Part shown: positions 9,819-31,739 of the stretch, piece after piece
Layout: each line of letters begins with the position of its first letter
Position numbering within the stretch: the stretch's first letter is position 1
Origin: Thermothielavioides terrestris NRRL 8126
Lineage: Eukaryota > Ascomycota > Sordariomycetes > Sordariales > Chaetomiaceae
Length of the DNA stretch: 64,000 nt
Assembly: GCF_000226115.1 (NCBI RefSeq)
Contig: NC_016460.1
Location: 434,001 to 498,000 of the forward strand
Direction: 5' to 3'
Made by a program: the position numbers and the translations under genes
The notes under the pieces: generated by a model
The model's database searches: none
Seen by the model: only the letters and a program-made list of their open reading frames with translations
What the model was told of the DNA's origin: nothing

Positions 9819-10882
9819 CTAGGCAATCTCCCCCGACTCAAAATCCCCGTTGTCTTCGTGTTCTGCGAACCAGCCGTGGATCTCCTTGAACTCGTGCGTC
9901 ATAACGCGGTAGGGATAGCCCTCAGGCCGCCTCAGATCCACAAAGGCGCCCTCGTCCAGCGCATTGTGCCGCTGCCATGCCAACACGGCATCGTAGTCCT
10001 TGCACCGATGCTGAATGTTGAAGTCCGGGAACGGGTGCTCGAGCGTGTCGGTCCACACGTGCGTGTACACGTCGGTGCTGGCCGAGCACATGATGTTCTG
10101 CGCGAGCAGCCAGACGCAGTGCGTCAGGTGCAGCTGGTGCAGCCCGCTCGTACTGTTGAACCCGCCCGGGTAGCGCGCCGCGTAGTAGTGGTCGAAGCGG
10201 GCTTCGCGCCGCAGCGCATCCAGACAGTGCAGCTGGTGGAAGACGTCTAGGCGCCCGAAGTAGCTGTCATTTCCGCGTCCCCAGTCGGGCGGGATGCGGA
10301 CCGCCTCAGCCGGGTCCTTGCCGATGGCGAGCACCTGCTCGCGCGTCAGCGCGATGGGCCGGGTATCGTACAGCGACGCCCACGCTCTGTCCACCTCGTG
10401 GCTCGGTTCTTGCCGGTAAATGATTGGCGGCTTGGTGTTCAGGAGAGTCCCGTTGATGCGCTTCCGGATAATGCGTATGTCCGCCTCATCGAGAAGGGGC
10501 GCTGTTGACCATCATTAACGAACAAAGTTCCCAATCCCTCATTATAGCAGCCACTCGGTTGGTTTTGTGGGTCAGACTTACATGGCATGGCTAGATGCCT
10601 CCATTCATGGTTCCTTCGCTGCCCCTCGATGCGGTCTACATACAGTGGGCGTGACGGTCTGAGAGACAAGACGAAAAGTGTGCTCGACAGTATAAAGAGA
10701 GCTAGATTTAGCCACACAAAACACGTTGAATAGGGTATCCAACCCCGCGGCGTTTGTTTCGCGGATCCATCATCAATCTCGTGGTTCAACTCGCTCAGTG
10801 TTCCGTCTTCACCGTCAGAATAACCTTGGACAGTTTGATACCTGGGCTTCAGCCGAAAAGGAAAAGCAAACAACGACGGCAT
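9819..10882 (-). CDS. UstYa-family (DUF3328) oxidase, copy A
   Basis: Two exons (10882-10582 and 10501-9819, an 80-bp intron GTAAGT...CAACAG) encode about 327 aa. A single membrane anchor lies at residues 53-73 after a polar N-terminus, the usual UstYa topology. Both signature metal-binding motifs are present, HQLHC at 189-193 and HLTHC at 225-229, followed by the Cys-rich tail FNIQHRCKDYDAVLAW. UstYa proteins are oxidases that cyclise or hydroxylate ribosomal or non-ribosomal peptides (ustiloxin, asperipin, phomopsin, cyclochlorotine pathways). The exact reaction here cannot be told. The gene is divergent from copy B, with a 330-bp shared promoter region. The start is the ATG before PSLFAFPF; an upstream in-frame start would add 16 residues. 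Confidence 0.9.
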
Positions 10883-11212
10883 CTTGGATGGGTTGGTGGC
10901 GTGCCATACTTCGGTTCGCAGGACATGCAATCAGGCGGCGGGTGAGTGTGCTAATTGTTCACCCGATGTCAGCGTCCAAGTCAGCACACGCGCATTCCCA
11001 TGTACCGTCGGTCAGCCCAAGTGTCAGGCTGTCAGCACACGACCGACAAAGTCATCGCCCCACTTCATTGTACATGCGCCAGCAGCAGGAAGTCTAAGTA
11101 GCTAGGCGAGCTGTGTAGGTAGGCAAGGTACCTTAGCTACTGAAGCTCCAACTCTCGTGCTAAACCCTCGCTTCGAAAACGAGAGTATTGTCAATGTCCA
11201 TCAGTCCACAGT
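10883..11212. promoter_or_regulatory. Shared divergent promoter region of UstYa copies A and B
   Basis: This 330-bp gap lies between two oppositely oriented UstYa start codons. No specific binding site can be named with confidence. It would be a natural place for a common element bound by the locus regulator. Confidence 0.45.
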
Positions 11213-12000
11213 ATGGCGACCCCGAAGCAGCTACCTTGTCATATTTACTTTCTCGCAGTTCTGCTCTCCACTGTGTTTGCACTTGTCATAGCACCGTCTC
11301 TTCTCCCAGATCGATTGAAACTCCAAGGCGGTTTCTGGACCAGCCTGAACCCACCCAGTCACGCACAGTGCCCCCAGAATTCCCTTGGATTGCACCTACA
11401 AACTTTCACGTACCACCGAGGCGAAGCGGCAGGGGACCATATGTCGCTCATTGGACAAGCAAGGGCCATACTCAATGAGAGCGCTGGAAACGAATTTGTC
11501 CGGCTGCGGGAACATGGAGCACAACCAAAGCGCTATGGGGTGTCCATGTTCCATCAGTTGCATTGCCTAGACCTGTTACGATCTGCCGTCTACGGCGACA
11601 CTGCGGCCCATGTTCACATCAAGAAGAGGGAAGCGGGAGACAAGATGGAGCACCTCGACCATTGCTTTCAATATCTCGCCCAGGTGAGAAATCTTGCCGC
11701 ATGTTGCTCCTATGGCTTACCTGGTTTGGCGGTCAACTTCTGACAAAGTCGATGGGTACATTACATGAAACATAGGCTATCCTGTGCGCGGCTGATGACA
11801 CGATTGAACCCCCTTTTGTGGCTGAAACCTCGCAAGGGACGAAGGTCCTCGTCATTGACGGAGACGGGGTTGCGCATCAATGTCGGGAGTTCGGGGCCGT
11901 GTATCGAGCTATTGTCCACAGTCAGGCCCAGCCAATTATGGTAGGGAGGAATTTGACACCGGGGGATAGCCTACGGGGCATCTTGAATCTTGGGAGCTGA
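11213..12000 (+). CDS. UstYa-family (DUF3328) oxidase, copy B (short form)
   Basis: Exons 11213-11683 and 11776-12000 (a 92-bp intron GTGAGA...ACATAG, phase 0) give about 231 aa. A hydrophobic anchor is at residues 11-28. The motifs HQLHC (114-118) and HLDHC (147-151) are intact, followed after the intron by AILCAADDTIEPPF and a Cys-containing HQCREFGAVY segment. The protein is shorter than its neighbours, mainly in the region between anchor and first motif, which matches the shorter class of UstYa proteins. The cytosolic N-terminus is almost absent. It probably oxidises a peptide in the secretory pathway together with the other copies; the substrate is unknown. Confidence 0.9.
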
Positions 12001-12393
12001 GTCATTGTCGTCGAGACAAGAAGGTACCCCAATCTACCTACCCCAGCCAACTGTGGCGGCAGTGAGCGCGGGCACGGAGAAATACCAATTCTAATAATAA
12101 ACATTGGCAATCAACTACCAAACTAAGCCAACATGCCTCATTTGAGCACGCCTGAAATGACCAGGGAGATGCTGCATCATAGGTAAAATGGCTGATCACG
12201 GTCTCTCTCGGCCTCTCGCTGGCTCCTGGAGGGAGGGCATGGTGAGTGAAGTTGGAAAGTTTCTAAGGTGAGGACTGAAGTACCCAACGGAAATGACCGA
12301 AAATGGGGCGCAGGCATAAAAGGGAGATTCTTATTGAAATTAGTGGCGAGAACCTGCAGTGTCTTACTAGGTAGATAGCACTAAATTATGGGA
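12001..12393. other. Intergenic between convergent UstYa genes B and C
   Basis: No open frame or repeat of note. It probably contains the two 3' UTRs. Confidence 0.4.
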
Positions 12394-13599
12394 TCATGCG
12401 AGCTCCTTTTTTCCCTCAGCCGCTTCCTGCCTTGCCCTCTCGGCCTCTTCGGGATGCTCTCTCCAATATTTGAAATATGGATTCCCCGGAAACGCCATGT
12501 ATTGGTCCTGAATGTCTTCCCAGGGTGCGTTGTCAAAGCCAGACGCCCGCATAATCTCCTCCGCTTGCTCGGGCGTGACCTTGTAGGACCATGCCCCCGC
12601 TCTGTGCGCCTTCGCCCACTCCTGAATCTTTTTGAAGTTGCGGCACGTGTGTGTTGTCGCCAGGCGCGGCACGATGACCTTGTTCGCCGGGAAGTTGACG
12701 CGAAATGGGATGGGCGCGACGTCGGCGTGGCACATGAGCGCTTCCCGGATGGAATCGACGCAATGGTCTTCAATGATGAATTGAGTTTCAATCCCAAGAC
12801 TCCCAAGGTATCAATGCTTCTTCTGGGACACTTACCCCAATGACGAAACTCAATACTTGTCCGATCAATCACCCCATTCTCGTCAGTCACGGCCGCCAGG
12901 CCCGGAAACCGCTCGGGATAGAGTAACATGCGCAAGTCGTTCAGGCAATGTAATTCATGCCAGATATCCAACTGGATGAGGTAATCCTTTGTTCCTGGAA
13001 TGGGCAGCGTCGGGTGCGGAAGTTTCTTGGCCTCTTCCTCGGTGATCTTGGAGATGCCAACTGCGATAGTCAACCATCGCCCGTATCAATCCTCAGGCTT
13101 CATGGCCTTCAGGGACGGTTCAAGGCAACGGCAGAGGATTAGCTAGGTACTTACACCTGTACAGGTCCTTCCATAGCTCGTCGGTCTCATTGGTCGGGAA
13201 CCCCATGTAAGGGCTCTTGTCAAAGAGTGACGGACGGAATCTGTATTCTTGGATGTATTCGACGGCCTCATTGGCCGGTGCTGCGGTATTTGAGGAAGCA
13301 TGATGAGCATCACGTCTCCAGCCACAGTTCACGTCGCCTGGGGCACACCTACAATACACGCCAAGGGTAGGGTCCTGAATAGGCCTGTCTGCAAGTCTTA
13401 AGGCCAGAGCAAATGCAAAGAGAAGGAGAAGCGCGTTGGAGGCATAGAGACACAGAACGTGAGATCTCGAGTAAAGGGGGATGCGTGTCCGCCCTTCCTG
13501 GCACTGGCAATCAGATGCATGGTCGCGGACCAAGTGTGCCTTCTCCGAGTCAAAGGCACAATCGTCCGAGGATTCCGTCGAGGAGCGACCAGAAGCCAT
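12394..13599 (-). CDS. UstYa-family (DUF3328) oxidase, copy C
   Basis: Three exons (13599-13155, 13060-12836, 12767-12394) with introns of 94 and 68 bp encode about 347 aa. Splicing restores the family's LYRFGISKITEEEA start of the core domain and the junction FRHW-DHCVDSI. A single transmembrane segment is at about residues 47-69. The motifs are HELHC at 183-187 and HWDHC at 222-226, followed by REALMCHADV and the THTCRNFKKIQEW tail, which are hallmarks of the longest-studied members (UstYa, AprY). The C-terminus extends into a charged helix rich in Glu, Arg and Lys. The ATG at 13599 was chosen; an upstream in-frame ATG at 13728 would give a longer N-terminus. Of the six copies, this is the most typical in sequence. 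Confidence 0.92.
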
Positions 13600-13968
13600 T
13601 CTCTGTTGGCTGAGATGGATTGAACAAACCGTATGGCACAGGCAGAGACAAAGAAGAAGCCAAATCCCTGCCGAGGTAAGGTTCGATGTTGGTGTGGTAG
13701 CTTCGGAAAGAAAGTATGGTATGAACATGGCCGGGGACGTCCTCTCTAACAGCTGCCGGCAGCTCTGTCATCAATGCGACAGGCGATAGTAGCCCCCACG
13801 TAGGCTGACACTGATGACAATGTCAGCCAACACGAGCTGACAGTGTCTGTTGCATATAGATTGCTATATTCGTTCAATGCAAATGCGATCCGTCACTCGG
13901 ACAACAACGCGACACAGTACTGATCACCGGCACTACACCCTTACCAAGTGCAGCCTTGAAGCACGTTT
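13600..13968. other. Upstream region of UstYa copy C; no gene
   Basis: Short overlapping open frames only. It is the promoter side of copy C, and beyond it lies the solo LTR in front of the peptide gene. Confidence 0.35.
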
Positions 13969-13973
13969 CTTTC

Positions 13974-14172
13974 TGACACGCTACAGCGAGCTGCGAGGTG
14001 TGGATGCAACGGTGGGATCGTAGTAGAGCATCGGGATGCAAAGAGAGTGCGTTGTTCCAGTACAAAGGAGAGCTAAAGACTGAACAGAGCGTGGTATATA
14101 TACATCCAGGAGTGGGGAAGCCATGGCCAGTGCGCTGTGCCAAGCTCTGAGCCCCTTACCCCTGACGTGACA
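13974..14172 (-). mobile_element. Solo LTR of the Ty1/copia family
   Basis: This 199-bp copy of the copia LTR runs TGTCACG...CGTGTCA on the minus strand. Perfect 5-bp target duplications (ctttc at 13969-13973 and 14173-14177) prove an insertion event. It has few C-to-T changes compared with the LTRs of the full element. It ends 10 bp before the start codon of the small secreted peptide, so it has displaced or replaced that gene's proximal promoter. An internal TATATATA lies at about 14094-14101. Confidence 0.93.
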
Positions 14173-14182
14173 CTTTCCGAAG

Positions 14183-14465
14183 ATGAAGGTCATCTCCGTA
14201 GCCATCTTGCTTCTCACCGCGGCTTACGCTGCGCCCATCGGTACGAACCCCAACTGACATGAAGTCTGGAGCTGATAACGTCGGGTGCTAACCGCTTGTG
14301 CTCCCGGATCTAGACTCCATCTGCGGATCCGGCAAGAGAGACGTGGGCCTTGTCACCAGGGCCCTGCACTCGGTCCTGGAGGATCTCAAGGACAAGCGAG
14401 AGGTCTCCGAAGTCGACGTGGACGAGATCTCCCAGGCTCTTTACGCGACGTGGTGCACGCCTTAG
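14183..14465 (+). CDS. Small secreted peptide with two Lys-Arg sites; candidate RiPP precursor
   Basis: Exons 14183-14240 and 14314-14465 (a 73-bp intron GTACGA...TCTAG with an internal CTAAC branch-like site) give 69 aa. Residues 1-16 form a clear signal peptide (MKVISVAILLLTAAYA) before API. The mature part has Cys near each end (SICGSGKR and ATWCTP) and two dibasic Kex2-type sites: GSGKR at residues 22-28 and KDKR near 48. The last segment is acidic and ends LYATWCTP, rich in the aromatic and Cys residues that UstYa enzymes and related oxidases modify. Dikaritin precursors share the signal peptide plus Kex2-site design but usually hold several core repeats; only one possible core is seen here. 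It could instead be a small effector or signal peptide. It is transcribed between two clusters of UstYa genes. Confidence 0.65.
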
Positions 14466-14732
14466 TGTGCTAAGGGTGGACATCAATGCAGGCCTTCTTT
14501 CTTGGGGTCCCGTTTCAGACAACCTCCACGAACTGTGACCACGGGAACCTACTTGTGCCCTCCTGGAGGCCGGGGATGTTGAAGGCTTGCCGGCATGTTG
14601 ATGGATCGCCGCATGTAGTAGCTCGCTGGGTATTCCGTCGTTGATCGCTCCAGTTATCTATGCTTATGATAATTTTTCAACCATGTCATCTGTACAACGA
14701 TCATAAACTTCTTGCCGAAGACAAATGGTACT

Positions 14733-14933
14733 TGACACGCTACAGCGAGCTACGAGGTATAGATGCAACGGTGGGATCGTAGTAGAGCATCGGAATGCAA
14801 AGAGAGAGTGCGTTGTTCCAGTACAAAAGAGAGCTAAAGACTGAACAGAGCGTGGTATATATATATCCAGGAGTGGGGAAGCTATAGCCAGTGCGCTATA
14901 CCAAGCTCTGAGCCCCTTACCCTTGACGTGACA
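14733..14933 (-). repeat. 3' LTR of the copia element
   Basis: 201 bp, about 90 percent like the solo LTR at 13974 by eye, differing mainly by C-to-T and G-to-A changes. Confidence 0.92.
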
Positions 14934-14999
14934 TACCCCCCAGTTGTTCAACAGAGCGCTTGAATATATACGAGTTGAACAACTGAACTACGAAAAACC

Positions 15000-17900
15000 A
15001 GAATATAGGAAATCCTTATGAACAGTAGGTTATATAGGAGTAGGTTGCGTAAAGCTATAAGAAATTCTAAAGCGCGATTCTAGCTAATTAGAGTACTTAG
15101 ATCTAGGGGAGGTATAAATTTCTACTTATAGGAGCTCAAGCTTCCTTCTTCCTATATACATCCTCTTATTTATATATATAGTAGCTACTACCACTACTAT
15201 TCCTAGCTCCCTAGAGCGTATAAGACCACTATACCTCTATACTTCGACATCTTCTTAGACGAATTGCCTATACTTTCGCCTACCCCTTCAAAGGAGGGTA
15301 ACAATGTTAAAGAGCTTATAGTAGAACCTACTACCCTATATACTACTTCTAAAGAGCTTGCTACGCCTTCTTCCAACTAGCGCTACGGTCCCTTAGTCAA
15401 GTAAGTTATACGCTCTTCCTTCTAGCCCACTACTATATCGCCCTAATATACCCCTTAGTTATACGCTATAAATGACTATAGAGCGTAAGATCCTATATCT
15501 AGGCTATATATATACTGCTCTTATAGGCTCCTACGATAGAACCTACTATAACTATAATAGCTATAGTGTACACTACTAGTACTATAAACGCTTTAACTAT
15601 AGCTACAAGCCAATCCTACCTACTACTATAGAGAAGGTACGAGCTTTAACTATAGCCATCAACGACTTCGACTAGAAGGTAAGTCTCTACTATCCACTAC
15701 TCTATACTCTTTATCTAATACTGTATAGGCTATAAAGAAGATCTGTCCTACGCTTTATATACTCTTGAATAATCTTTAAAAAGTCGAGAAGAAGGGAGAG
15801 TAGAAGGATATAGATATAGTAGAGCCGGTAGAGGAGTAGCCTTAGTAGTAGGCGTAGGAGGTCCTTATAGCCGCCTAAGGTAGAGCCCTAAATAACCCCC
15901 TCGGTTTTACGCCTATAGCGTTGATAGAGAGTGAAGCGTAGAAGGTACTCTCCAAGTAGGTAGAGAGCAACAAATTGGTTGATAACTAGGAACTAGAGCA
16001 GGTCGTTATATAGACAATAGAGTTGGCAAAGCGGTTAGAGATATAGGCAAGGATCCTTCGGCTTTAGAGAAAGGTAGTAATAACAAAGCTTATTAATCGC
16101 TAGAATACGTAGAGCAAGAGCATAGAACAATAGTAGTAGATAGTCTTTATAAAGAAAATGGTTGACTCCCCTACTCTTTTCTTGCCTAATGTATATCTTA
16201 AAGGTTCAATAGAGCATAGAAGTGCTCGAACTTCTACTTCGAGAGCTATTTCGTTAAACTGTCTATAGGCATCTCTATAGTAGGGAGGTAGAGTACGTCG
16301 AACTACTTGTTCTAATACTCCTAGCAAAGCTATATATTGTAAATATCTATATAGCGTAGATGAGTATTAATCTTTATATACTCTCCTACTATAAGCCGAA
16401 TCGTTTGCTAATTGTTATAGAAGATTCTCTAAGGCTCTTTAATTTTAAATGCAAGGTCCTTAAACAAGCGCTTTAGGGCGATTGTCTTAGCTATAGTAAG
16501 CGATAGAGCTTTCAACTCTACCTCGATAGAAGATATAGTGATAGTATTTTACTATATAGCCTTCTAGAAGATCAACCCTCTAAAGAGTATTATAATATAA
16601 CTCTACAAAGAGCGTTGTATATCTAGATTATCGCTATATAATACGTTAGATATAATCTAGAGTACCTAGTAAATGCCTTTACCCCTATACTATATACTAA
16701 GGAAGTGTATAGTATATAGATATTAAATAACTCGTTTCGCCGCTTTGATATACTCTAGTCCTAGATTCGTTAGGAACTAGGAGAGCTTCATAGTTGTAAA
16801 CGCGATATCCGGTTAGATTATAACTATAAAGTAGAGGATCAAGCCTACGAGCTTTTAGTATAGTTTAACCTATTTAGGGGACGCCTCTCCTTCGAACTTA
16901 TAAAGCTCCTTAGCGAAAAAAGGGATAGCTAGAGCGCTCGTAATATCGGAGAGACTATACTTCTTTACGATCTTCTCGATATATTGGTCGTATATAAGCT
17001 AGATCTTATATACTCTATAGTTATAGATGACCTTAATCCTAAGGAAGTGCTCAATATCGCCTTACTTATATACCTTGTACTTCGCTTTAATACCCTTTAT
17101 AATACGCTCTATAGCTATAGCGTTATCTCGATAGTATACTACTAAGAAGTCGTCGATATAGAAGATAAGGATTATCTTCTTCTTAGGATCGAGGAATAGG
17201 CAAGGTTCTTCTATAAAGGGTTGTAAGCTAAGCTCTTTAAGAGTACTATAGAACTCATTGTACTATAAGAGCGACGAGTCCTTTAGTTTATAGAGAGCCT
17301 TTAGAAGCTCTACGCAGATCTTTAGTTTCTTAAATCCGTCTAGAAGCTTATAAGTCACCTACTCTATGTCTAGCCTCTTTATATTTAAGAACGCCTATTT
17401 AACATCGAACTACTTCACTTCGAGGTCGAAGTGCACTATAAGCGCTATAACAGTGCGAAAAGAGTATATAGCGAAGGTAGTTGTATATATATTCGTAATA
17501 TTAGTAGTGTCTTATAGATCGCCTTATATATAGATACGCGCCTTACACTTCTTAAGGTTACTATCCTTATTAAGCTTATAGTCGAATACCTATTTTAAGG
17601 GTAGAGGCTACGTTTTTATATACTTTCGTTTGATCTTTCGCTATATTCCTTTGCTCATTAGATTATAGATCTCCTTATATATAGCCACTTTCAACTCCTT
17701 CCTATACTTATAGTTCTCTAAGTCTCTCTAGCTCTTTAAAAGAGGGGGGAGCTCGGTATTATAACGTATCGTTAGCATCTAGCTAGCGGTAGTAGTAAAT
17801 ACTGTATATAGGGTTTAGAACGACTTTGGGAAAAGCGTTTTAATACCCTCCTAAAACGTAGAGAAGAGCGTCTCGTTGCTATCGTAGGCTCCTTAAGGAG

Positions 17901-20900: not shown

Positions 20901-21960
20901 AACAGAAAAACAGAAAAACTGGGTCCCCTATGTCCAGGTAGTCTATCACCCCAATTCAATACTTTCAAAAGCTTATAGTAGCCCTTCTCTACTTTAGTGA
21001 TTACCGTCTAGAGAAACCAATACTCTACTAGCTTCTACCTATACTTACTATTAGCCTTATAAAAGTATAAGTAGAGCCTTAAGCTATAAGAGCCTATATT
21101 ATCTATAGAACCATTGCCTTAAGCTACTCCTAAAGAGGTAAATACACTATAGCCGAGCCCTTTAGTAGCAGTGTTGTCGATCCAAATACTAAGGCGAGCG
21201 CCTAGCTCTTCAAGAGTAGGAATTAAGCGCCCCTAGGCCTTAAGTACCTCGATCTCAAAGAGCTAGTAACGAGCCTAGTCTAGGGCGATCTAGTGACCAA
21301 CCACTTCGATAAAGTGTTTAGATGCTCTAGGTCCAACTACTTTGGGGATATCGAAGCTCTTTGTATATAGGTACACCTCGTTCTAAGAGTAGTACCACTT
21401 ATATAGATTGATATCTACTCTATATATCTCTTATAATACCATTATATATTGTTGAGTAGCTAAATCTTCAACGAAAGTATCGAAGGGCGTAAGCTATTTA
21501 CAAAGCTTATAAATAAGAGCTTAGGGACTACTAAGTCCAACGTTCGAAATAACGATATATATAGCGTTGAATAGAGGTCAGTGAATAGAGCGTATAATCT
21601 ACTAGAGGATAAACGAATATAACTTTATTCTACTCTCCTAGATAGCTATAAGTATAAGGTATTCCTTATATATAGCTTCAAGCTTAGTAGCAACCTCTTA
21701 TTTAGTAGAAGCTAGGGCTTAGCCTATAGAGATACCTAATTCCTTAGTGTACTTCTTACAAAGTTCTTCGACTACCTTATCCTCTAAAGGAACTTTCGGT
21801 CGCTTATCCTAAGGCTCGTCGAGAGCATCTAGATTATATTCGTCCTAGATACTATTGCTTATAGCTACGAACTTAAGCTCTATAAACCACTCGGTCTAAT
21901 CTACATAGGACTAGAGCGTAATGGTTAAGCTACTCTCGGTAGTCGTTATATTGAGGTATA
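15000..21960 (-). pseudogene. Degenerate copia gag-pol
   Basis: Order on the minus strand is gag side (near 21.9 kb), then integrase/RT side, then the 3' end near 15 kb. The only domain I place with confidence is the RT active site YIDD (17149-17160). Frames are interrupted every few tens of codons by TAG/TAA. A short GA repeat lies in the leader at about 21973-21993. Confidence 0.7.
20458..20958 (-). mobile_element. Solo Ty3/gypsy LTR nested in the copia element
   Basis: This 501-bp LTR matches both LTRs of the Ty3 element at 31740-44839. It starts TGAAGTGG and ends AATTCA on the plus strand. A 4-bp duplication atac flanks it (20454-20457 and 20959-20962). It keeps many CpA/TpG sites that are mutated in the surrounding copia sequence, so it probably arrived after most of the RIP on its host. 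Confidence 0.93.
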
Positions 21961-22043
21961 GAGCGTAAGAAAAGGAGAGAGAGAGAGAGAGCTTACTATA
22001 GGTTACTAGCTACGTACAATTATAGAGCGCCTAGGCTTATAAC

Positions 22044-22244
22044 TGACATGCTATAGCGAGCTACGAGGTATAGATACAACGGTAGGATCGTAGTAGAGCA
22101 TCGGAATGCAAAGAGAGAGTACGTTGTTCCAGTACAAAGGAGAGCTAAAGACTGAACAGAGCGTGGTATATATATATCCAGGAGTGGGGAAGCTATGGCC
22201 AGTGCGCTGTGCCAAGCTCTGAGCCCCTTACCCCTGACGTGACA
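22044..22244 (-). repeat. 5' LTR of the copia element
   Basis: 201 bp, matching 14733-14933; carries the TATATATA promoter box at about 22168-22175. The right target duplication gtact follows at 22245. Confidence 0.92.
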
Positions 22245-22249
22245 GTACT

Positions 22250-22587
22250 CTTGCAATGTATCAGCTGTTGACTTCCTGCCCTAGTCTAGTGCTTGCAGCC
22301 AGTTCAAGCACAAGTTCGCGAACAAACTTAAAGCCTCCCTTTTCCCTTGACACTTTACATAACACAGGACACAATCACGCAGCTTGAACCCATCTCCCTT
22401 CCCGAATACCAAACATCCATATCCCTTCACTAGCAGCTCGGGCGCCATGTGCTTGGTTCGTTCTGATGTTTCCAAGACATCACCTTAGGGCAAGCGGCCT
22501 CAGACAGGGCTATCAAGTCCACAGATGCATCCAGAAAGGCAACGAGACTTCCCAACCCCTCCCGACACTCGTCCTATGTCCTGGCTT
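22250..22587. other. Intergenic between copia element and UstYa copy E
   Basis: Before the copia insertion this was continuous with 14466-14732. No convincing gene; a short minus-strand frame at 22281-22475 has no motif. Confidence 0.35.
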
Positions 22588-23483
22588 CTAAGGTTGATGT
22601 GCTCTTCTCCAAGTCTCCAAACCGCGAGGCCCGTCCCATGCGCGGCATCGATGCACGACCCCGATCCCGGTAAGGCTTGATCTGCCCGGATCGGGTCCCT
22701 CAAGCGTAGCATCCCCCGCACAGACGATTGCTTGCCTAAGATATTCAAAGCAGTGCTCAACGTGCTTCAAGTCCTGCATGTCCCGTCCCCCCAAGGCTGT
22801 CGAGTTCCGTGCTGTGGCCCCCAGCGAACGCACGAAATCGAGATGCAACTGCTTCAAGCAGTGCAGCTGGTGGTGCACACTGAGCATGTACACGTTCTCT
22901 GTCCCAGCAACGACGCCCTTGTTCGGCCGCAAAGAGTAGGCCTGCGGATCTGGGACGTGAACAAATGCTGTCGTCTCTGTTGCGAGCCATGAGAGAGCGT
23001 CCAGGCACATAGATAAGGTCGGCAGTCCTATGACAAACCACGAACCGTAGCTGCGCCAAGCGTTTTCCACCCCGAGAGTGCTCGTGAGATTGGTCATGGA
23101 CGGACTGTGAGTAAAAGCCCGGAGCGTCCAGGGAACTAGCGCAGTATCAGCATCTTAGCGTCGTCTCACCAGTCGTCCGGCAGTTCGAGCGCACTTGGGG
23201 GAACCGGGCTGTTCTCCGATGATGGGTCGCTCCGCGCGTATCTAACGGCCAGCAGGACGACAGCCAGACCTTCCAGCAGGCACAGGCCAGCCAAGACTCC
23301 GACGACAGCTCTGTAGAACTTGACGTTGCGGTTTTGGACTTGACTGGAAGACGGAACTGGTTTGATTGGACCCCGAGAGACCGGTGTTGCTTGCGTGAGA
23401 TTTGGGTTGTGTCCCTTGTCGATCGGGGACTCTGGAATGAGCTGGTAGAAGGCGTGATTTCGTGCTCCGAATGGTAACCACAT
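22588..23483 (-). CDS. UstYa-family (DUF3328) oxidase, copy E
   Basis: Exons 23483-23170 and 23104-22588 (a 65-bp intron) give about 276 aa. The transmembrane anchor is at about 58-80 (YRAVVGVLAGLCLLEGLAVVLLAV). The motifs HQLHC (183-187) and HVEHC (219-223) are intact, with the usual YLRQAIVCAGDATLE following the second. The tail VVHRCRAWDGPRGLETWR carries the third conserved Cys region. The stretch at residues about 126-165 (GLPTLSM...DPQAY) fits the family poorly and could be an unspliced 50-70 bp intron that happens to be open. The role is probably peptide oxidation within the locus; substrate unknown. Confidence 0.88.
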
Positions 23484-23900
23484 GACTTTCGGGCTTATGC
23501 TTGAAGAGAATGGTAGGGATTGCAGTGGAATTCGCTGAGTAGGAGTAGCTCTTCCGTAAGATGAGTTCGATCACACTTCCGGTGGTCCATTTGGTGGCCC
23601 ATACCTGCAAGGAGTATGGCCGCCGGAGCCACATAATGTTGCACGGTGCATGACGCGATCTCCCGCAACTTGGATGTCAGCACACCATTACTGTGGTAGT
23701 GTCAAACACCACCGGGCAAACAAGCAAGGGTCAGCCCAATTTCCCACTGTCAGCATCTGCCCCTCGCGGAGACCTCCATTCCTCCTTTCCATACCTTTTC
23801 CGTTCGTCTCTTGTTTGGTTTTTCTTTTTTCTTGTCATCTCTCTAGATGACAAATTATCTGGAAAGAAGTCACTAAGTTAGTTGGAATCTGCAACGCATT
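23484..23900. promoter_or_regulatory. Divergent promoter region between UstYa copy E and the TPR-like gene
   Basis: A 417-bp gap between opposed start codons, with a strong pyrimidine tract at about 23780-23840 just upstream of the TPR-like gene, common in fungal promoters. No named site is assigned. Confidence 0.45.
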
Positions 23901-24656
23901 ATGGCGGCAGCAGTCACCCCACGCTCCCGGTACTCCAACGACGCTGTCGCTGCCTCCGATGCGGCCCAGTCATTCCCGTGGGAAGCGCCGGTGCCCGTCA
24001 ACCCTTTCTGGGACAGCTTTGACTACTGCACAGCGCGCAACTTTCTGGGCAACTTCTCGGACCACGAGCTCGAACAGCTCCCCATCGACCCGGACAGCAC
24101 GGATGACCATGAAACCAAGCTCCGACTTCTCCTCCGTCTGCTCCAGGCGAAGATAGCCCAGGAAGAAGCGGCCAGTTCTCCGGAGTCTCTGTACACGGCA
24201 GACTACGCCCGATGGTACAGCCTCTGGCAGGGCGTGTACGTGTTTCAAGACAAGCTGGGCCTCCCGGAGGCGGAGCAGACCATCCGCATGCTCGTGGCGC
24301 GGCGGCCGGAAGGCTCGGATGATGTGAGGCCGCTTCATATACTTGCCGAGCACCTGGTCAAACTTGGAAAGTACAGAGAGGCCGAGGACACGGAGCGGCC
24401 AGTGTGCGCGTGGATGGACGCGCGGCCGCACTTGGGCAAGAGCTCGCCGCAGGCTATCAACGCGCGCAGGATCATCGCGAGGGCTCTCTGGGGCCAAGGA
24501 CCCCCCAGGCGAGCTGAAGCCAAGGCACTTCTGGCGGAGATTGCGGAGATTGTCAACAATATGGGCGGCAGTAGATTCGGTGCATATCAGGAAGAAGAGA
24601 GACAATTGAACCGCGCCCTGATGGCTGAGCTGGGAAACCCCGTGCTCGGAGAGTGA
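23901..24656 (+). CDS. Helical-repeat (TPR-like) protein of unknown function
   Basis: A single exon encodes 251 aa. No signal peptide or membrane segment is seen, so it is probably cytosolic. The middle (residues about 110-190) has paired amphipathic helices of TPR type: YARWYSLWQGVYVFQDKLG / EAEQTIRMLVARR, then PLHILAEHLVKLGKYREAEDTER, with the small-large residue pattern of TPR units. The end (ARRIIARALWGQG, EAKALLAEIAEIV) adds two more helices. I do not recognise a specific family. It sits between UstYa copies E and F, so it may be a scaffold or accessory factor of the locus, but nothing in the sequence proves that. Confidence 0.72.
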   Translation: MAAAVTPRSRYSNDAVAASDAAQSFPWEAPVPVNPFWDSFDYCTARNFLGNFSDHELEQLPIDPDSTDDHETKLRLLLRLLQAKIAQEEAASSPESLYTADYARWYSLWQGVYVFQDKLGLPEAEQTIRMLVARRPEGSDDVRPLHILAEHLVKLGKYREAEDTERPVCAWMDARPHLGKSSPQAINARRIIARALWGQGPPRRAEAKALLAEIAEIVNNMGGSRFGAYQEEERQLNRALMAELGNPVLGE

Positions 24657-24807
24657 AGCACGGCTCATGTCTTTACACTGTCATGATGCTTGTCTGGAGG
24701 TATTCGGCGTCTGGATGAAGCAGCCGAGGAAGTCATGGAGCGGAATAAATACATGTGCATCGTGACAGCACGAGCGGATGATATGCTACTGTTCTTTTTC
24801 ACTACCA

Positions 24808-25774
24808 TTAAACAACGTTGTTGCTTCCTCCCCACCACAGATTGTCCATGGTAACACTCTGCACGCCATTTCTCTTCGTCCAGTGATTCAGAGTGTCAAA
24901 GTTCCGGCAGTAGTGCAGGGTCCCAAAATCGAACGACACGTCCCTGTCTGACTCGGAGCCTGGCATCTCATTGGGCTTTCCGTGGTCATCGTAATAGAGA
25001 GTAATGGCGCCTACGTCTCCCCAGCACTTTTCAGCCGTTCAATTAGTCATGGTCCACCGACCGAAGGAACAAAAAAAAAAAAGGTTTCCAGTTGTCTTAC
25101 CATGACGGCCTGGCGTAATCGCTCAAGACATTGGTATGCTCGCTCCCAGACAAGGTCCTCGCCGCCTTGAAAGGCCTTGAGATGAGTATAATCGCGAGAA
25201 GTTCGGTAGCCCACCTGGCGGAGAAAGTTCAGACAGCCAAGCTGCACGGCATATTCCGGCAGCGCAAGGATGGAGTCGGGGTCCTCCGGGTTGCGAACCC
25301 AGGTCGGGGCGTCAGCAGGCCCGGGTTGGGCCAGATCATGAAGTCGAGAAGCCGAGATGGAAATGGGGTGCTCTGCGCATAGAGTCTGTTAGGAGGATAC
25401 CTAGAGAGTCATCCGACTGTGTAATCTACAAGGCGGGTTGCCCTGTGTAGTGCCGACAGTGATTACGATTGCAGGTTAAGGTGCTTACTTGGAAGTAACT
25501 CATCCCAGGCGTCTTCGATCTGGTCCGTGGGTGCGAACCCAAAGTAAGGCGTAGCAATTGCGAATTGGTGATTCTCAAACGTCCTCCAGCGGTAGTTGAC
25601 CATTTCCAGCGCCGGGGACCACGGATAGGTGTGACGATCACATGCTGCGTCGCTTGGCTGAATACGCAGTGCTGCGAAGACGATCACGCCGGCGTTAAGC
25701 ATAAGAAGAACGGAGAGGAGAGAAGTCCAATGTAGCCATGACCGAGCTCCGCGGCTCGTCGTTTGCCCAGCCAT
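24808..25774 (-). CDS. UstYa-like protein lacking both HXXHC motifs, copy F
   Basis: Exons 25774-25489, 25372-25101 and 25026-24808 (introns of 116 and 74 bp) give about 258 aa. Splicing restores continuous UstYa-like architecture: membrane anchor at 17-37, YFGFAPTDQIEDAWDELLPK, then the core. Where HQLHC is expected the sequence is AVQLGCLNF, and where the second HXXHC is expected it is ERAYQCLERLRQAVMCWGD. The Cys residues stay but all four His are gone. The C-terminal LHYCRNFDTLNHW segment is well conserved. Because the reading frame and splicing are intact, this looks like a maintained non-catalytic paralogue, perhaps a partner subunit, rather than a decaying gene. UstYa proteins are known to act in pairs (UstYa/UstYb), which makes a partner role plausible. 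Confidence 0.82.
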
Positions 25775-26023
25775 CACCGTTTGCTTCTTTCAGAGGCGAA
25801 GACTTCCTGTCTAGGTGGGGAAAGGTCTCAGGTTCGTCACTGGGGTGACTCAATACAGATGCACGTAGAGGTGCCCTAGAATTCTGCGGCTCATCGACCA
25901 TGCTGCTGAACTGCTGCAAACAAAGGAAGTACGGACCCAGAGGAGGAGACGATTGCCCATGTCCCACCGTGGGAGTGTGCTGACAACAACGGGTCCGCTC
26001 GCTCGCCGTCAGCTGACGCGAGG

Positions 26024-26074
<51 letters not shown>

Positions 26075-26234
26075 CGACCTCCTGTAGTATTCTGTATTCT
26101 TCCTGACACGCCCTCATCAGCAACGGGCATTGTACGCCAAGAATAAACTCAGGAGCAGCAAAACGTTGACTTGGACCAAGTTTGAGGTAGCCATTATTTT
26201 TTTTGTTGCAGCGGGGAAGCCACTGGAGGGTAGA
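25775..26234. promoter_or_regulatory. Divergent promoter region of UstYa copies F and G with poly-A tract
   Basis: A 460-bp region between opposed start codons. It contains an uninterrupted run of 49 A (26024-26072), which may stiffen DNA and exclude nucleosomes. Confidence 0.5.
26024..26072. repeat. Poly-A tract, 49 nt
   Basis: A perfect homopolymer of 49 A on the + strand. Confidence 0.9.
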
Positions 26235-27276
26235 ATGCCGAGCGACACGCGAATATGCCGTGAACGGGACGTGGAGGCCGACATTCCACTGCTGAAGGAC
26301 ACACCCGAAAGCGAGGAGGGCTCCCATGGTGCTGCGGAACACCCCGAAACCCTCGGCCGTCCATACGCATTGTGGCTGCCGGTGTCCGTGGCGGCTGTGG
26401 TTCTCTCTATTTTGTTTTACGGAGTTATCCACTACCGAGCGGCAAACGATATATCATGCCAGCGTCGTATGTGGCCTTACAGTGAGTTATACCTTCTAAT
26501 CCTAAGGATTGTCTGGCGCTGAATCCGGCTGACAGCGGTTTGGCGTCCTCCAGGCCCCGAGACGGACCACCTCGAGTTCGAGGTACGGCAATACGACTCG
26601 GATCTGATCCCCAACGAGCTTTTCGGACTGCCCACTCAGGAGCGCCGCGATGCTTGGGACTGGTTATGGAAGAGTGAGCGTGTTCCTTCCGGCAGCGTGT
26701 CATGAACCGCTTACGGCCATTTCTTACGCTTTCTAATCTTGACTCTAACTCCACGCAGCGGGACGCATCAGCTTCCCATATGAGAAGTTGGACTCTGTAA
26801 ACAAGTCGACGGAAGCTCGCGAGTGGTGGACGCTGCCTTTTCCGCGGAACGACGAAGTGATTGCCATGTCCGAAGGTGCGTGCAGGCCCAGTTCCCAGGT
26901 TGGGTCAAGTCAAGGTGCTAACGGATTCTTCAACTTGAAAGTGATGCATCAGGTGCACTGCGTCGGCGTGCTCTGGCTGTTCGCCCACCGCGACAACTGG
27001 GACTACCGCACGATTCTCAACAGGACGGAGCTCTTCATGCAGATCCACCAACGCCACTGCGGCGTGGTGCTGCTGGAGATGGTGAAGTGCATGGCGGACG
27101 TGACGCCTGTGCTCTTCCAGCACGATGGGAACAAGCGACTGGGCGCGTGGAAGCCGCGGGATGCGCCGAGACGGTGCAAGAATTTCGACCTCCTTGCACA
27201 GTGGGAGCGGGACAACAGCATCTGTCCTATGGCCTGTACGCCAGAAGATGTATCTCGCATCTACAATCATACCTAG
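26235..27276 (+). CDS. UstYa-family (DUF3328) oxidase, copy G
   Basis: Four exons (26235-26481, 26554-26673, 26759-26875, 26942-27276) give about 272 aa. The third intron is in frame and open, but its GTGCGT donor, GCTAACGG branch site and GAAAG acceptor, and the join MSEVMHQVHC, support it. A membrane anchor is at about residues 44-64 after a polar tail. The motifs are HQVHC (just after the third intron) and HQRHC about 32 residues later, followed by EMVKCMADVTPV and the CKNFDLLAQWE tail. It is divergent from copy F, the degenerate copy, so the two may be co-expressed as an active/inactive pair. The ATG before PSDTRICRERD was chosen; an earlier ATG at 26130 runs close to the poly-A tract and lacks a plausible context. 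Confidence 0.9.
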
Positions 27277-27490
27277 GTAGCTTCCTCTGCGTGATGCGTA
27301 ATCACCGTACTGTATGTACCCCTGCTTAACATGCGGGCTATAAAGTCCTGCCCCGTCCCCGGCGGCGAACTGTTAGTGCACAAATAAACCAGTATGGTCT
27401 TGACTGTTGGCCTCATAACGCGTCAAGCTAATCAGCAGAGCGAGACTTCTTTGCCTCTCTATGCAGAGCCAACTCAATCAGCGGAGGCAC

Positions 27491-28744
27491 TCAAGTGTCC
27501 ATCATATCAAGCACGTCCCCCGTCTCCTCGCTATGGCAACCCCCGTGGGCACCGACACCTATAGCGGCATTCAGGTCCGCGCCTTCCTTGGCCAACAGCC
27601 TGATTATCGGCTCGCACTCGGCGTCCGCAGCAGCGTGCAGCGGGCTTCGGCCGTCATGATCGCGGGCCTCCGGATCCGCTCCCTCGGCCAGCAGCTGCGC
27701 GACAATATCTGCGTGCGCACCGCCCGCTGCGTAATGCAGCGCCGTGCGACCTCGCCAGTCCGGCACGTCGACGTAAACATCGTTCGCCAGAAGGAACTTG
27801 ACGATCTGCGAGTTGCCGCGCTCGGCTGCGATGTGCAGAGCCGTCTTGCCTCTGTGGGCTATGGGGTCGTCGCTGCCGCTGCCGCTGCCGCTGCCGCTGG
27901 ACAGACTCCAGGTTGTCATCGGCGGCGATGTTAGGATATACGGACCCCTCTGCGTTGCTGTGCCCCAATGGGATGGTTTTTGACGGTGCGTGCCTCTGGG
28001 GGTTGGATGCCCCAGGGGTTTGTGAGTGGCGTTTGGCTTGGGGGCGGGCAGCTTTCCTGAGTCCCGATTCGTGATCAGTCCTTCAAGAGCCATGCCAGGG
28101 GCTCTGCTAGAACTGTTCTGCGGCGAGACGGGCACCAAAGGGTCCTGGTTGGGAGACAACCGAGCCGCGGGACTGCAATGAGGGAACCGAAGGTCTGGGT
28201 CCAGAAGAAAGTGAGGGATGGTTTCTGCCACGGTTGCGGAGTCGTGGAGGTAGCCCACGGCCAGGTGCGGCGAGTGTTCACTGGAGTCGGTCCGTTCTAA
28301 TGCCAGAGCATCTCGTGTAGAAGCCGCCGATGTCCTAGGCTCAATGATGTCAAGCTGGGCGGGAGGGATATTCAAGGCGGCTAATGACTGTGCTGACGCA
28401 GTTCGCTTGGGGGTGGCTCCAGTTTGTTCGCCGTTGGTTCGTTCGGCTTGAGAGTTGGTGCTAGGATGGGGAGGGCAGCAGCTGCCGCAGATACCACGGT
28501 GCGATGCCCGAGATCCATCACCTTCGTGGTCTAGCGATCGGTCGATCTGGCTTTCTCGTTCATGCTGTCGCTTCAGCTCTAGTTCTGCCCGCCGCTTACC
28601 TGCCACCGAGCTGCTTAGGCACATAGTCACCAAATCACAGGGGAAGCCTCCTGACTTACGGCGGTTCCTCTGAGCAATGCGGTTCTGAAGCCTTCTTCGT
28701 TCAAGGGCAGCAATTGCAGCTTGCGCATCTGGCTGGGTATCCAT
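27491..28744 (-). CDS. bZIP-type basic region plus ankyrin repeats: bANK (TOXE-like) transcription factor
   Basis: Exons 28744-28660 and 28599-27491 (a 60-bp intron) give about 397 aa. The basic DNA-contact region RRRLQNRIAQRNRR is split by the intron exactly within NRR-KRRAELELKRQ, and no leucine zipper follows. The middle is a long Ser/Pro-rich linker with a GSGSGSGSD run. Residues about 277-374 hold three ankyrin repeats (KTALHIAAERGN, RTALHYAAGGAH, RSPLHAAADAEC). This combination defines the bANK class, whose known members TOXE (HC-toxin) and the apicidin regulator control secondary-metabolite clusters. It ends the locus on the right and is therefore the likely pathway-specific activator of the UstYa genes and peptide. 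Its target sites are not identified here. Confidence 0.88.
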   Translation of the reverse strand: MDTQPDAQAAIAALERRRLQNRIAQRNRRKSGGFPCDLVTMCLSSSVAGKRRAELELKRQHERESQIDRSLDHEGDGSRASHRGICGSCCPPHPSTNSQAERTNGEQTGATPKRTASAQSLAALNIPPAQLDIIEPRTSAASTRDALALERTDSSEHSPHLAVGYLHDSATVAETIPHFLLDPDLRFPHCSPAARLSPNQDPLVPVSPQNSSSRAPGMALEGLITNRDSGKLPAPKPNATHKPLGHPTPRGTHRQKPSHWGTATQRGPYILTSPPMTTWSLSSGSGSGSGSDDPIAHRGKTALHIAAERGNSQIVKFLLANDVYVDVPDWRGRTALHYAAGGAHADIVAQLLAEGADPEARDHDGRSPLHAAADAECEPIIRLLAKEGADLNAAIGVGAHGGCHSEETGDVLDMMDT

Positions 28745-29246: not shown

Positions 29247-31739
29247 TACTGTAAGGGTTTGACCACTATGAGCCGGTCGACCACTGCGAGCCAGTTCGAC
29301 GGTTCAACCATTGCGAGCCGGTTCGACCACTGCGAGCCAGTTCGACGGTTCGACCACTGCGAGCCAGTTCGACGGTTCAACCACTACGAGCCGGTTCAAT
29401 AGTTCAACCACTGCGAGCTGGTTCGACGGTTCAACCACTACGAGCTAGTCGAGCACTGCGAGCCGGTTCAATAGTTCAACCACTGCGAGCTGGTTCGACG
29501 GTTCAACCACTGCGAGCCGGTTCGACGGTTCGACCACTGCAAGCCAGTTCGACAGTTCAACCACTACGAGCTAGTCGAGCACTGCGAGCCGGTTTGACGG
29601 TTCAACCACTGCGAGCCGGTTCGACCGCTGCAAGCCGGTTCGACGGTTCAACCACTACAAGCTAGTTCGACCACTGCAAGCCGGTTCGACGGTTCAACTA
29701 CTACGAGCCGGTTCAACGGTTCAACCACTACGAGCTAGTTCGACGGTTCAACTACTACGAGCCAGTTCAACGGTTCAACCACTGCGAGCTAGTTCGACCA
29801 TTGCGAGCTAGTTCGACGGTTTAACCACTGCGAGCTGGTTCGACCACTGCAAGCCGGTTCGACAGTTCAACCACTGCGAGCCGGTTCGACTACTGCGAGC
29901 CGGTTCGACGGTTCAACCACTACAAGCTAGTTCGACCACTGCAAGCCGGTTCGACGGTTCAACTACTACGAGCCGGTTCAACGGTTCAACCACTACGAGC
30001 TAGTTCGACGGTTCAACTACTACGAGCCAGTTCAACGGTTCAACCACTGCGAGCCAGTTCGACCATTGCGAGCTAGTTCGACGGTTTAACCACTGCGAGC
30101 TGGTTCGACCACTGCAAGCCGGTTCGACAGTTCAACCACTACGAGCCGGTTCGACTACTGCGAGCCAGTTCGACGGTTCAACCACTACGAGCCAGTTTGA
30201 CCACTACAAGCTAGTTCAACAGTTCAACTACTACGAGCCAGTTCGACTACTACGAGCTAGTTCGACGGTTCAACTACTATAAGCTAGTTCGACAGTTCAA
30301 CTACTACGAGCTAGTCGACTATTGCAAGCTAGTTCGACAGTTTAACCACTGTAAGCCAATTCAACCACTGCGAGCTAGTTCGACAGTTCAAGTACTACGA
30401 GCTAGTTCAATAGTTTAATTACTACGAGCTAGTTCGACGGTTCAACCACTGTAAGCCAGTTCAACAGTTCGACTACTGTAAGCTAGTTCGATAGTTCAAC
30501 TACTATAAGCTAGTTCGACTACTATAAGCTAGTTCGACAGTTCAACTACTATAAGCCGGTCGACCACTATAAGCCGGTTCAACAGTTCAACTACTATAAG
30601 CTAGTTCGACGGTTCAACCACTGCGAGCCAGTTCAACAGTTCTACCACTATAAGCTAGTTCGACAGTTCAACTACTATAAGCTAGTTCGACCACTGTAAG
30701 CTAGTTCGACAGTTCAACCACTATAAGCTAGTCGACCACTGCGAGCTGGTTCGATAGTTCAACTACTACAAGCTAGTCGACCACTGCGAGCTAGTTCGAC
30801 AATTCAACTACTATAAGCTAGTTCGACTACTATAAGCTAGTTCGACAGTTTAACTACTATAAGCCGGTTCGACGGTTCAACTACTATAAGCCAGTTCGAT
30901 AGTTCGACTACTACAAGCTAGTTCGACAGTTCAACCACTATAAGCTAGTCGACCATTGTAAGCTAGTTCAACGGTTCAACTACTATAAGTAAGTTCGACT
31001 ACTATAAGCCAGTTCGACGGTTTAACTACTATAAGCTAATTCAATAGTTTAACCATTGTAAGCCAGTTCAATGGTTTAACCACTGTAAGCTAGTTCGACG
31101 GTTCGACTACTATAAGCCAGTTCAACAGTTCAACTACTATAAGCTAGTTTAACCACTGTAAGCTAGTTTAACGGTTTAACTACTATAAGCTAGTCGACCA
31201 CTGCAAGCTAGTTCAACAGTTCAACTACTATAAGCTAGTTCAACTACTATAAGCCGGTTCAACGGTTCAACTACTATAAGCCGGTTCGACAGTTTAACTA
31301 CTATAAGCTAGTTCAACAGTTTAACTACTACAAGCTAGTTCGATAGTTCAACTACTATAAGCTAGTCGACTACTATAAGCTAGTTCAACGGTTTAACTAT
31401 TATAAACTAGTTCAACTACTATAAGCTAGTTCAACGGTTCAACTACTATAAGCTAGTTCGATAGTTCAACTATTATAAGCTAGTTCAATGGTTTAACCAC
31501 TATAAGCTAGTCGACTACTACGAGCTAGTTAGACAGTTCAACTATTGTAAGCTGGTTTAACCACTACGAGCTAGTTCGATAGTTCAACTACTACGAGCCA
31601 GTTCGACGGTTCGACCACTGTAAGCTAGTTCGACAGTTCAACTACTACAAGCTAGTTCGACCACTGTAAGCCAGTTCGACGGTTCAACCACTATAAGCTA
31701 GTCGACCACTGCGAGCTAGTTCGACAGTTTAACCACTAT
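29247..31739. repeat. 27/19-bp minisatellite array, left part
   Basis: Tandem array of the 27-bp unit (core GAGCCGGTTCGACGGTTC + AACCACTGC) mixed with a 19-bp unit lacking the inner GGTTCAAC part. Early copies (29.3-30.2 kb) keep the GC-rich form. Copies from about 30.4 kb to the Ty3 element are shifted to forms such as CTACTATAAGCTAG, with transitions at C:G pairs only. The array continues on the other side of the Ty3 insertion. Confidence 0.95.

What the first reader, a model, noticed from the sequence alone, without database searches (positions are those of the whole stretch)
9819..28744. UstYa-rich locus with peptide, TPR-like protein and bANK regulator but no NRPS/PKS
Six UstYa/DUF3328 genes, a Kex2-type secreted peptide and a TOXE-like regulator lie within 19 kb (11.5 kb without the copia element). 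Seen: motifs and gene order. Known: UstYa enzymes mature ribosomal peptides (ustiloxin, asperipin, phomopsin) and act on some NRPS peptides; bANK factors control toxin clusters. Inferred: a dikaritin-like pathway with an unusually high number of UstYa genes, lacking the tyrosinase, methyltransferase and peptidase genes seen in the ustiloxin cluster.
Basis: partly seen in the sequence, partly recalled or inferred. Interest (0 to 1): 0.88.

Follow-up and report, generated by a model that had tools for sequence, protein, structure and literature searches.

The report
Copper-oxidase peptide cluster with inactive member
A heat-loving fungus packs six UstYa-family genes, a predicted gene-switch protein and one small peptide gene into 19 kb, with one DNA motif repeated in the shared promoters; five of the six are predicted copper oxidases, the sixth (conserved in other fungi) has lost the copper-binding histidines and is likely a helper, and together they would make an undescribed modified peptide.

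Summary
Window = Thermothielavioides terrestris, contig C4. All six UstYa models pass Pfam PF11807; the 69-aa peptide, bANK regulator and TPR protein are sound gene models. No NRPS condensation domain, tyrosinase or S41 peptidase was found on C4; the nearest ketosynthase is about 389 kb away. (1) The locus is four divergent gene pairs (Y1|Y2, Y3|peptide, Y4|TPR, Y5|Y6) whose shared promoters hold 13 copies of GTCAGC against 1.5 expected (4, 3, 3, 3), none upstream of bANK: a co-regulation signature. (2) One UstYa (Y5) lacks both HxxHC motifs, the binuclear copper site of the family (PMC12435403); 0 of 17 aligned Y5 rows, from three fungal classes and metagenomes, have one, although the cysteines stay. 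It is a conserved pseudo-UstYa. (3) A solo LTR sits 10 bp before the peptide's ATG. Best reading: a RiPP-type cluster whose secreted single-copy precursor is likely oxidised by five copper UstYa enzymes with Y5 as non-catalytic partner. Strict dikaritin membership fails (no repeated cores, no tyrosinase). The peptide as substrate is unproven; the one search found no relative outside the species.

The parts
9819..10882 (-). Y1, UstYa protein, 327 aa, one intron (10581-10502); HQLHC and HLTHC
   Evidence: PF11807 193.5 bits; motifs and model
11213..12000 (+). Y2, UstYa protein, 231 aa, one intron (11684-11775); HQLHC and HLDHC
   Evidence: PF11807 83.1 bits
12394..13599 (-). Y3, UstYa protein, 347 aa, two introns; HELHC and HWDHC (second motif spans a predicted intron); a start at 13728 is also open
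   Evidence: PF11807 171.4 bits
14183..14465 (+). 69-aa peptide gene: predicted signal peptide, two KR sites, C-terminal segment EVSEVDVDEISQALYATWCTP; intron 14241-14313
   Evidence: single copy in the genome
13974..14172 (+). solo LTR between Y3 and the peptide gene, TSD CTTTC, ends 10 bp before the peptide ATG; carries TATATA at 14095 and TGACGTGA at 14163-14170
   Evidence: 40 of 97 candidate copies in the genome were scored
14733..22244 (+). full-length LTR retrotransposon splitting the locus, TSD GTACT; its two LTRs differ from each other by transitions only (10 of 201 columns), as RIP would leave
22588..23483 (-). Y4, UstYa protein, about 278 aa (exon borders in the middle uncertain); HQLHC and HVEHC
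   Evidence: PF11807 66.9 bits
23901..24656 (+). TPR-fold protein, 251 aa, single exon, no membrane helix by hydropathy
24808..25774 (-). Y5, pseudo-UstYa, 258 aa, two introns; VQLGC and RAYQC where HxxHC stands in the family
   Evidence: PF11807 105.2 bits; residues 58-258 identical to annotated P0079
26235..27276 (+). Y6, UstYa protein, 294 aa, two introns; HQVHC and HQRHC
   Evidence: PF11807 109 bits
27491..28744 (-). bANK-type regulator, 397 aa with predicted intron 28659-28600: basic region, no leucine zipper by reading, ankyrin repeats in the C-terminal part
10968..11036 (.). four GTCAGC sites in the Y1|Y2 divergent promoter
13804..13841 (.). three TGTCAGC sites in the Y3|peptide divergent promoter
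23676..23754 (.). three GTCAGC sites in the Y4|TPR divergent promoter
25979..26017 (.). three GTCAGC sites in the Y5|Y6 divergent promoter

Best explanation
This is a cluster of four divergent gene pairs with a common promoter motif, next to a predicted bANK-type regulator, that likely makes a ribosomal modified peptide: a predicted secreted 69-aa precursor would be cut at its KR sites and oxidised by five predicted copper UstYa enzymes, helped by a sixth UstYa (Y5) that lacks the family's copper ligands and likely serves as a non-catalytic dimer partner. Shown here: the six UstYa domains, five with both HxxHC motifs, all six with one N-terminal hydrophobic helix and four aligned cysteines; the His-less Y5 clade; the promoter motif; the absence of NRPS/PKS/tyrosinase nearby. 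Inferred: that the bANK protein binds GTCAGC-type sites; that Kex2 cuts the precursor in the Golgi and frees the C-terminal 21-mer with its Tyr, Trp and Cys (YATWCTP); that the UstYa enzymes act on it in the Golgi/endosome lumen; that Y5 pairs with one or more of the others through the coiled coil and cysteines described for CctR and helps fold, hold or present the substrate. The role of the TPR protein is a guess: a cytosolic adaptor for the regulator or for peptide traffic.
For: Six of at least 15 UstYa loci of the genome lie here, all above the Pfam cut-off. GTCAGC is the most enriched non-homopolymer 6-mer of the promoters: 13 against about 1.5 expected, Poisson p 9.7e-9 among 1,115 words, with 4, 3, 3, 3 copies in the four divergent promoters and 0 upstream of bANK; 8 of 976 overlapping control 400-bp windows hold 3 or more; 0 of 400 random sets had a 6-mer as extreme in at least 4 segments. 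The same pattern, all promoters except the regulator's own, is reported for the bANK factor Apf2 (PMC4109984 passages). [quoted passage not shown] Y5 clade: 0 of 17 rows with HxxHC; the four His positions read V/A (16 of 17), G/A (17 of 17), R (16 of 17) and Q (17 of 17 as aligned), the exception being outlier P0094; both motif cysteines and a third invariant, the fourth in at least 90%. 9 of 9 UstYa loci elsewhere in the genome keep at least one HxxHC. Peptide and Y5 relatives lie on contigs of one and the same length in a second T. terrestris assembly.
Against: No expression or chemistry. The peptide has no relative outside the species in one search of 5.8 billion proteins, which scored only 1 candidate, no repeated cores, and an LTR between it and the motif sites (gap 342 bp; about 138 bp without the LTR and its duplication, against 86-218 bp for the other seven starts). 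No maturation peptidase or transporter was seen. I noticed the motif by eye before the enumerated test; for any 6-mer irrespective of spread, 3 of 400 random sets were as extreme. Same-strand triplets of GTCAGC are no more common genome-wide than the reversed control pattern (11 against 13). The Y5 model is weak (pLDDT 68) and found no fold match at E 0.001. Outlier P0094 keeps one His-Cys at its second site. Y5 and TPR relatives are shown on contigs of equal length only, not side by side. The exact Apf2 box TGACGTGA occurs only in the three LTRs, not in the UstYa promoters.
Confidence: 0.5

Rival explanations
1. The UstYa set acts on something else: an NRPS or other product made at a distant locus, or a precursor peptide encoded elsewhere; the 69-aa gene is an unrelated orphan.
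For: UstYa enzymes act on NRPS peptides too (cyclochlorotine, PMC12435403). The genome has NRPS condensation domains on C1, C2 and C3. The peptide is an orphan in the one search made and has no repeated cores.
Against: No condensation domain on C4, nearest ketosynthase about 389 kb off; the peptide gene has coding signal, a predicted signal peptide and KR sites, and shares a motif-bearing divergent promoter with Y3.
Confidence: 0.22
2. A decaying cluster: intact enzymes remain but a solo LTR in the peptide promoter and a 7.5-kb retrotransposon have switched it off.
For: Solo LTR 10 bp upstream of the ATG with three upstream ATGs, two of them in frame with short ORFs; full element inside the locus; AT-rich repeat block next door.
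Against: All nine gene models read through without a stop; peptide identical in a second T. terrestris record.
Confidence: 0.15
3. Y5 is not a dimer partner but the missing accessory protein: copper carrier, chaperone or electron-transfer partner, or an enzyme with other ligands.
For: The CctR authors postulate an accessory protein that delivers Cu(I) or electrons (PMC12435403). The Y5 clade has its own invariant residues.
Against: The family cysteines and the two motif helices are kept while the four histidines are gone, as expected of a degenerate subunit; Pfam found nothing but UstYa in Y5 and NCBIfam, a bacterial and archaeal library, nothing.
Confidence: 0.25

Closest known systems
Phomopsin / ustiloxin clusters (dikaritins)
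   Same: Several UstYa/DUF3328 genes beside a signal-peptide precursor with Kex2 sites; phomopsin has 5 UstYa genes (PMC7329392 passages)
   Different: Here no tyrosinase on C4 and no S41 peptidase in the genome, no repeated cores, a bANK-type instead of a PhomR-like zinc-finger regulator (PMC6514808 passages), a TPR protein, and one His-less UstYa
Asperipin-2a cluster
   Same: A four-gene cluster without tyrosinase or peptidase (PMC6514808 and PMC12048977 passages)
   Different: One UstYa, a transporter and a reductase; repeated precursor sequences (PMC7329392 passages)
Cyclochlorotine cluster (CctO, CctP2, CctR)
   Same: Three UstYa genes in one peptide pathway; CctR is the biochemical model of the family (PMC12435403, whole text)
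   Different: Non-ribosomal substrate; CctR works as homodimer; no His-less member described in the main text
Apicidin F / HC-toxin clusters
   Same: bANK regulator; in apicidin F a promoter box in the cluster genes but not in the regulator's own promoter (PMC4109984 passages)
   Different: NRPS clusters; boxes TGACGTGA and ATCTCNCGNA, not TGTCAGC
TlxI/TlxJ heterodimer
   Same: A catalytically incompetent homologue serves as partner of an active oxygenase (PMC12141560 passage)
   Different: Non-heme iron family; pairing of Y5 is untested

Membership tests
UstYa/DUF3328 (PF11807) | Profile score over the curated cut-off | tested here: met
   6 of 6 models, 66.9-193.5 bits against 25
UstYa/DUF3328 (PF11807) | HxxHC(x)nHxxHC copper motif | tested here: not met
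   Met in 5 of 6 (Y1-Y4, Y6); absent from Y5 and from all 17 aligned Y5-clade rows. Y5 is therefore filed as a His-less branch
UstYa/DUF3328 (PF11807) | Single N-terminal membrane helix, luminal domain | tested here: met
   Hydropathy peak 2.19-2.58 in the N-terminal part in 6 of 6; topology itself not tested
Dikaritin (definition of Ding et al. as told in PMC12048977) | Precursor with leader and repeated core motifs | tested here: not met
   The three Kex2 segments of the 69-aa protein are not repeats of one another (read from the sequence)
Dikaritin | Multiple DUF3328 proteins | tested here: met
Dikaritin | Tyrosinase | tested here: not met
   No PF00264 match on C4, 19 of 19 candidates scored
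Dikaritin | Methyltransferase | tested here: inconclusive
   No PF13489 match within about 0.9 Mb on C4, but only 28 of 68 candidates were scored; other methyltransferase families not searched genome-wide
Dikaritin | Peptidase or transporter | tested here: not met
   No PF03572 match in the genome; no transporter family in 38 proteins scanned in and around the locus; uninterrupted ORFs only outside the locus, so exon-split genes may be missed
Kex2-processed repeat protein (KEP) | At least 3 tandem repeats of at least 8 aa between Kex2 sites | tested here: not met
   Definition from PMC7329392 passages; the peptide has two KR sites and no repeats by reading
bANK transcription factor | bZIP-type basic region without leucine zipper | tested here: inconclusive
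   bZIP_Maf 17.7 bits, cut-off 22; zipper absent by reading
bANK transcription factor | C-terminal ankyrin repeats | tested here: met
   PF12796 98.3 bits; three PF00023 stretches; four repeats in ToxE, Aps2, Apf2 (PMC4109984 passages)
TPR (kinesin-light-chain type) | TPR helical-pair superhelix | tested here: met
   All-helical model at pLDDT 94.8; best Foldseek hits 4y6c, KLC1 and KLC2, but E 1.6e-3 at best and TM about 0.5; profile hits to KLC at E 1e-5; no Pfam TPR hit in the protein itself

The most novel reading that the evidence does not exclude
The UstYa family has a two-component form: an ancient, copper-less pseudo-UstYa lineage (Y5) conserved across three ascomycete classes that pairs with copper-bearing UstYa enzymes and steers them onto a single-core, non-repeat precursor, carried with a TPR protein as a portable cassette that crossed from Sordariomycetes to Aspergillus niger.
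Probability: 0.25. Interest if true: 0.8.

Novelty: new variant of a known kind. Interest (0 to 1): 0.63.

Why it matters
UstYa proteins were shown in 2025 to be binuclear copper oxidases working as dimers (PMC12435403). The double HxxHC motif has been suggested as a reliable mark of RiPP-related members (PMC12048977 passages), so a conserved member without it would escape such screens, and it suggests that some UstYa enzymes work as active/inactive pairs, which could explain why clusters need several UstYa genes. The precursor screen of PMC7329392 demands at least three repeats and would also miss this peptide. The host is a sequenced biomass-degrading thermophile with published transcriptomes (PMC8176577 passages), so both points can be tested.

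Tried and rejected
Rejected: NRPS/PKS tailoring genes. Rejected: Api-box TGACGTGA as the cluster's regulator site; the 3 window matches lie in LTRs of a dispersed family. Considered: pheromone precursor (WC near the C-terminus); no repeats and no relative, and all but three pheromone-type KEPs lacked DUF3328 neighbours (PMC7329392 passages). Led nowhere: viral-contig scans for Y5 and TPR relatives, 31 and 46 pattern matches, none confirmed; fold search of Y5, 56 matches at E <= 10, none at 0.001; solved structures for Y1 (best E 0.27, an APC/C activator, taken as chance) and for the Y5 profile, 0 hits; NCBIfam, nothing for 4 proteins; four papers on phomopsin, victorin, ApnU and AprY are not held. 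Horizontal transfer of Y5 into A. niger: the 8 Sordariomycete rows as one clade without A. niger are rejected (p-AU 0.0039), the 4 Sordariales rows are not (0.078); the groups were named after the tree was seen; kept as a lead. Rows dropped: Y5 tree 14 of 17 rows (P0079, P0093, P0094 left out); TPR alignment 38 rows = window + 37 of the 76 other hits; TPR tree 35 rows = own + 34 of 76. No mention of a His-less UstYa or of this locus was seen in the listings of searches or in the passages read (open-licence papers only).
Full report
WHERE. The window is G000:C4:434001-498000, a 36.9-Mb genome in 6 contigs.

THE SIX UstYa GENES. Exon-joined models score 193.5, 83.1, 171.4, 66.9, 105.2 and 109 bits against PF11807 (cut-off 25). 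The genome-wide search gave 21 matched stretches that I group into 15 loci, 6 of them here (a lower bound, since L016 holds another HVVHC/HTVHC protein). All six have one N-terminal hydrophobic helix and four aligned cysteines. Y1-Y4 and Y6 have two HxxHC motifs each; in Y3 the second spans a predicted intron. Y5 has none.

Y5 IS A CONSERVED PSEUDO-UstYa. The search returned 16 proteins: T. terrestris itself and 15 others, at 27-70% identity to Y5: Aspergillus niger, Podospora appendiculata, Chaetomium, Lasiosphaeris, Apiospora, two Xylariaceae, Xylaria, Glarea and six without a name. A. niger is a Eurotiomycete, Glarea a Leotiomycete, Podospora and Apiospora are Sordariomycetes. At the two motif sites the rows read (V/A)(Q/D)L(G/A)C and R(A/T/M)(Y/H)QC, except P0094; 0 of 17 rows hold HxxHC anywhere. 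P0094, a distant outlier (27-30%), reads ELLGC at the first site and HQDLDHC around the second, where it keeps one His-Cys. Both motif cysteines and a third are invariant, the fourth is in at least 90%. Elsewhere in this genome 9 of 9 other UstYa loci keep at least one HxxHC inside the matched stretch. [quoted passage not shown] His and Cys to Ala mutants lose all activity; CctR, and as told there ApnU and AprY, need dimerisation (PMC12435403, whole text). So Y5 is predicted to be copper-free and inactive yet dimer-competent. Its AlphaFold model is weak overall (pLDDT 68) but has helices 78-94 and 110-131 of P0079 at the motif sites, block means mostly 72-87. A dead partner that supports an active homologue is known in another fungal oxygenase family, TlxI/TlxJ (PMC12141560 passage). 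That Y5 pairs with Y1-Y4 or Y6 is inference.

ONE REGULON. The genes stand as four divergent pairs plus bANK. Enumerating 6-mers in the four shared promoters and the bANK upstream stretch against 103 kb of the same genome, GTCAGC was the top non-homopolymer word: 13 seen, 1.5 expected, in 4 of 5 stretches with 4, 3, 3, 3 and 0 copies. 8 of 976 overlapping control windows of 400 bp hold three or more. Random sets: 0 of 400 had a word as extreme in four or more segments, 3 of 400 had any word as extreme. I had seen the word by eye first. Over the whole window GTCAGC is not enriched: 32 seen, 27.8 expected by shuffling, so the excess is local to these promoters. A same-strand triplet pattern has 11 matches in the genome, 2 of them in Y1|Y2, no more than the reversed control pattern (13); triplets as such are not rare genome-wide, and the case rests on all four promoters having them. 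For Apf2, a bANK factor, the box is likewise in the cluster promoters but not its own (PMC4109984 passages). That bANK binds GTCAGC here is inference.

THE PEPTIDE. Predicted signal peptide, two KR sites, single copy in the genome, good codon score though not used in training. Its C-terminal segment holds Y, W and C. It is no KEP (three or more repeats needed, PMC7329392 passages). A solo LTR (13974-14172, TSD CTTTC) ends 10 bp before its ATG, so its leader and core promoter must be LTR or lie beyond it. The LTR holds TATATA at 14095 and three upstream ATGs, two in frame with short ORFs. All 11 substitutions between the solo LTR and the 5' LTR of the full element are C-to-T or G-to-A (plus two gap columns), as RIP of the full element would leave. 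Without the LTR and one copy of its duplication the motif would sit about 138 bp from the ATG, in line with 86-218 bp for the other seven starts (with Y3 starting at 13599). Whether the LTR now drives, damps or silences the gene is unknown.

WHAT IS ABSENT. No condensation domain on C4; ketosynthases on C4 at 8-9 kb, 54 kb and 3.1 Mb only; no tyrosinase on C4; no S41 peptidase in the genome; no Methyltransf_23 within 0.9 Mb among 28 scored of 68 candidates. Neighbours include HSP20, an APH-like kinase just below cut-off, a lectin, GH18 and alginate lyase on the left and Ap4A phosphorylase, Myb, arginyl-tRNA synthetase and other genes on the right (29 uninterrupted ORFs, so exon-split genes may be missed).

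THE TPR PROTEIN. 76 other hits in Sordariomycetes, Eurotiomycetes and others, one paralogue at 39% on C5, a high-confidence model with kinesin light chains among the nearest solved folds and profiles. In A. niger and P. appendiculata, the two named species besides T. terrestris with hits in both lists, the Y5 and TPR relatives show the same longest contig length (4,980,735 and 11,237,682). These are megabase contigs, so this is suggestive only. The TPR family is wider than the Y5 clade, so it is not tied to it.

VERDICT. Real, coherent, co-regulated by sequence signature, not a strict dikaritin cluster; most interesting for its conserved copper-less UstYa. Substrate, product and Y5's role are untested.

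Noticed in passing
window 29262-31739 and 44838-46721: Two arrays of the same diverged 19/27-bp repeat (GTTCGACCACTGCAAGC type) flank an AT-rich stretch.
   Followed up: no
window 4000-4053, 46732-46790, 57958-58012: Interstitial telomere-like tracts (CCCTAACC / GTTAGGG).
   Followed up: no
window 26024-26072: 49-bp A run inside the Y5|Y6 divergent promoter.
   Followed up: no
window 6577-6668: Two TGTCAGC sites lie upstream of an HSP20 gene (ORF 5545-6408, minus) left of the locus; may be chance or a further member.
   Followed up: no
L016:2666-3451: A 261-aa minus-strand ORF with HVVHC and HTVHC, UstYa-like by motif and not in the family search's list, beside another UstYa gene on C3; not scanned with Pfam.
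   Followed up: partly
Y5 relatives (A1): The A. niger Y5 relative sits among Sordariomycetes in the tree, a sign of possible horizontal transfer.
   Followed up: partly
window 14163-14170, 14924-14931, 22235-22242: All three LTR copies in the window carry TGACGTGA, the box of the bANK factor Apf2, at their 3' end; dispersed copies of this LTR might carry bANK-type sites.
   Followed up: partly
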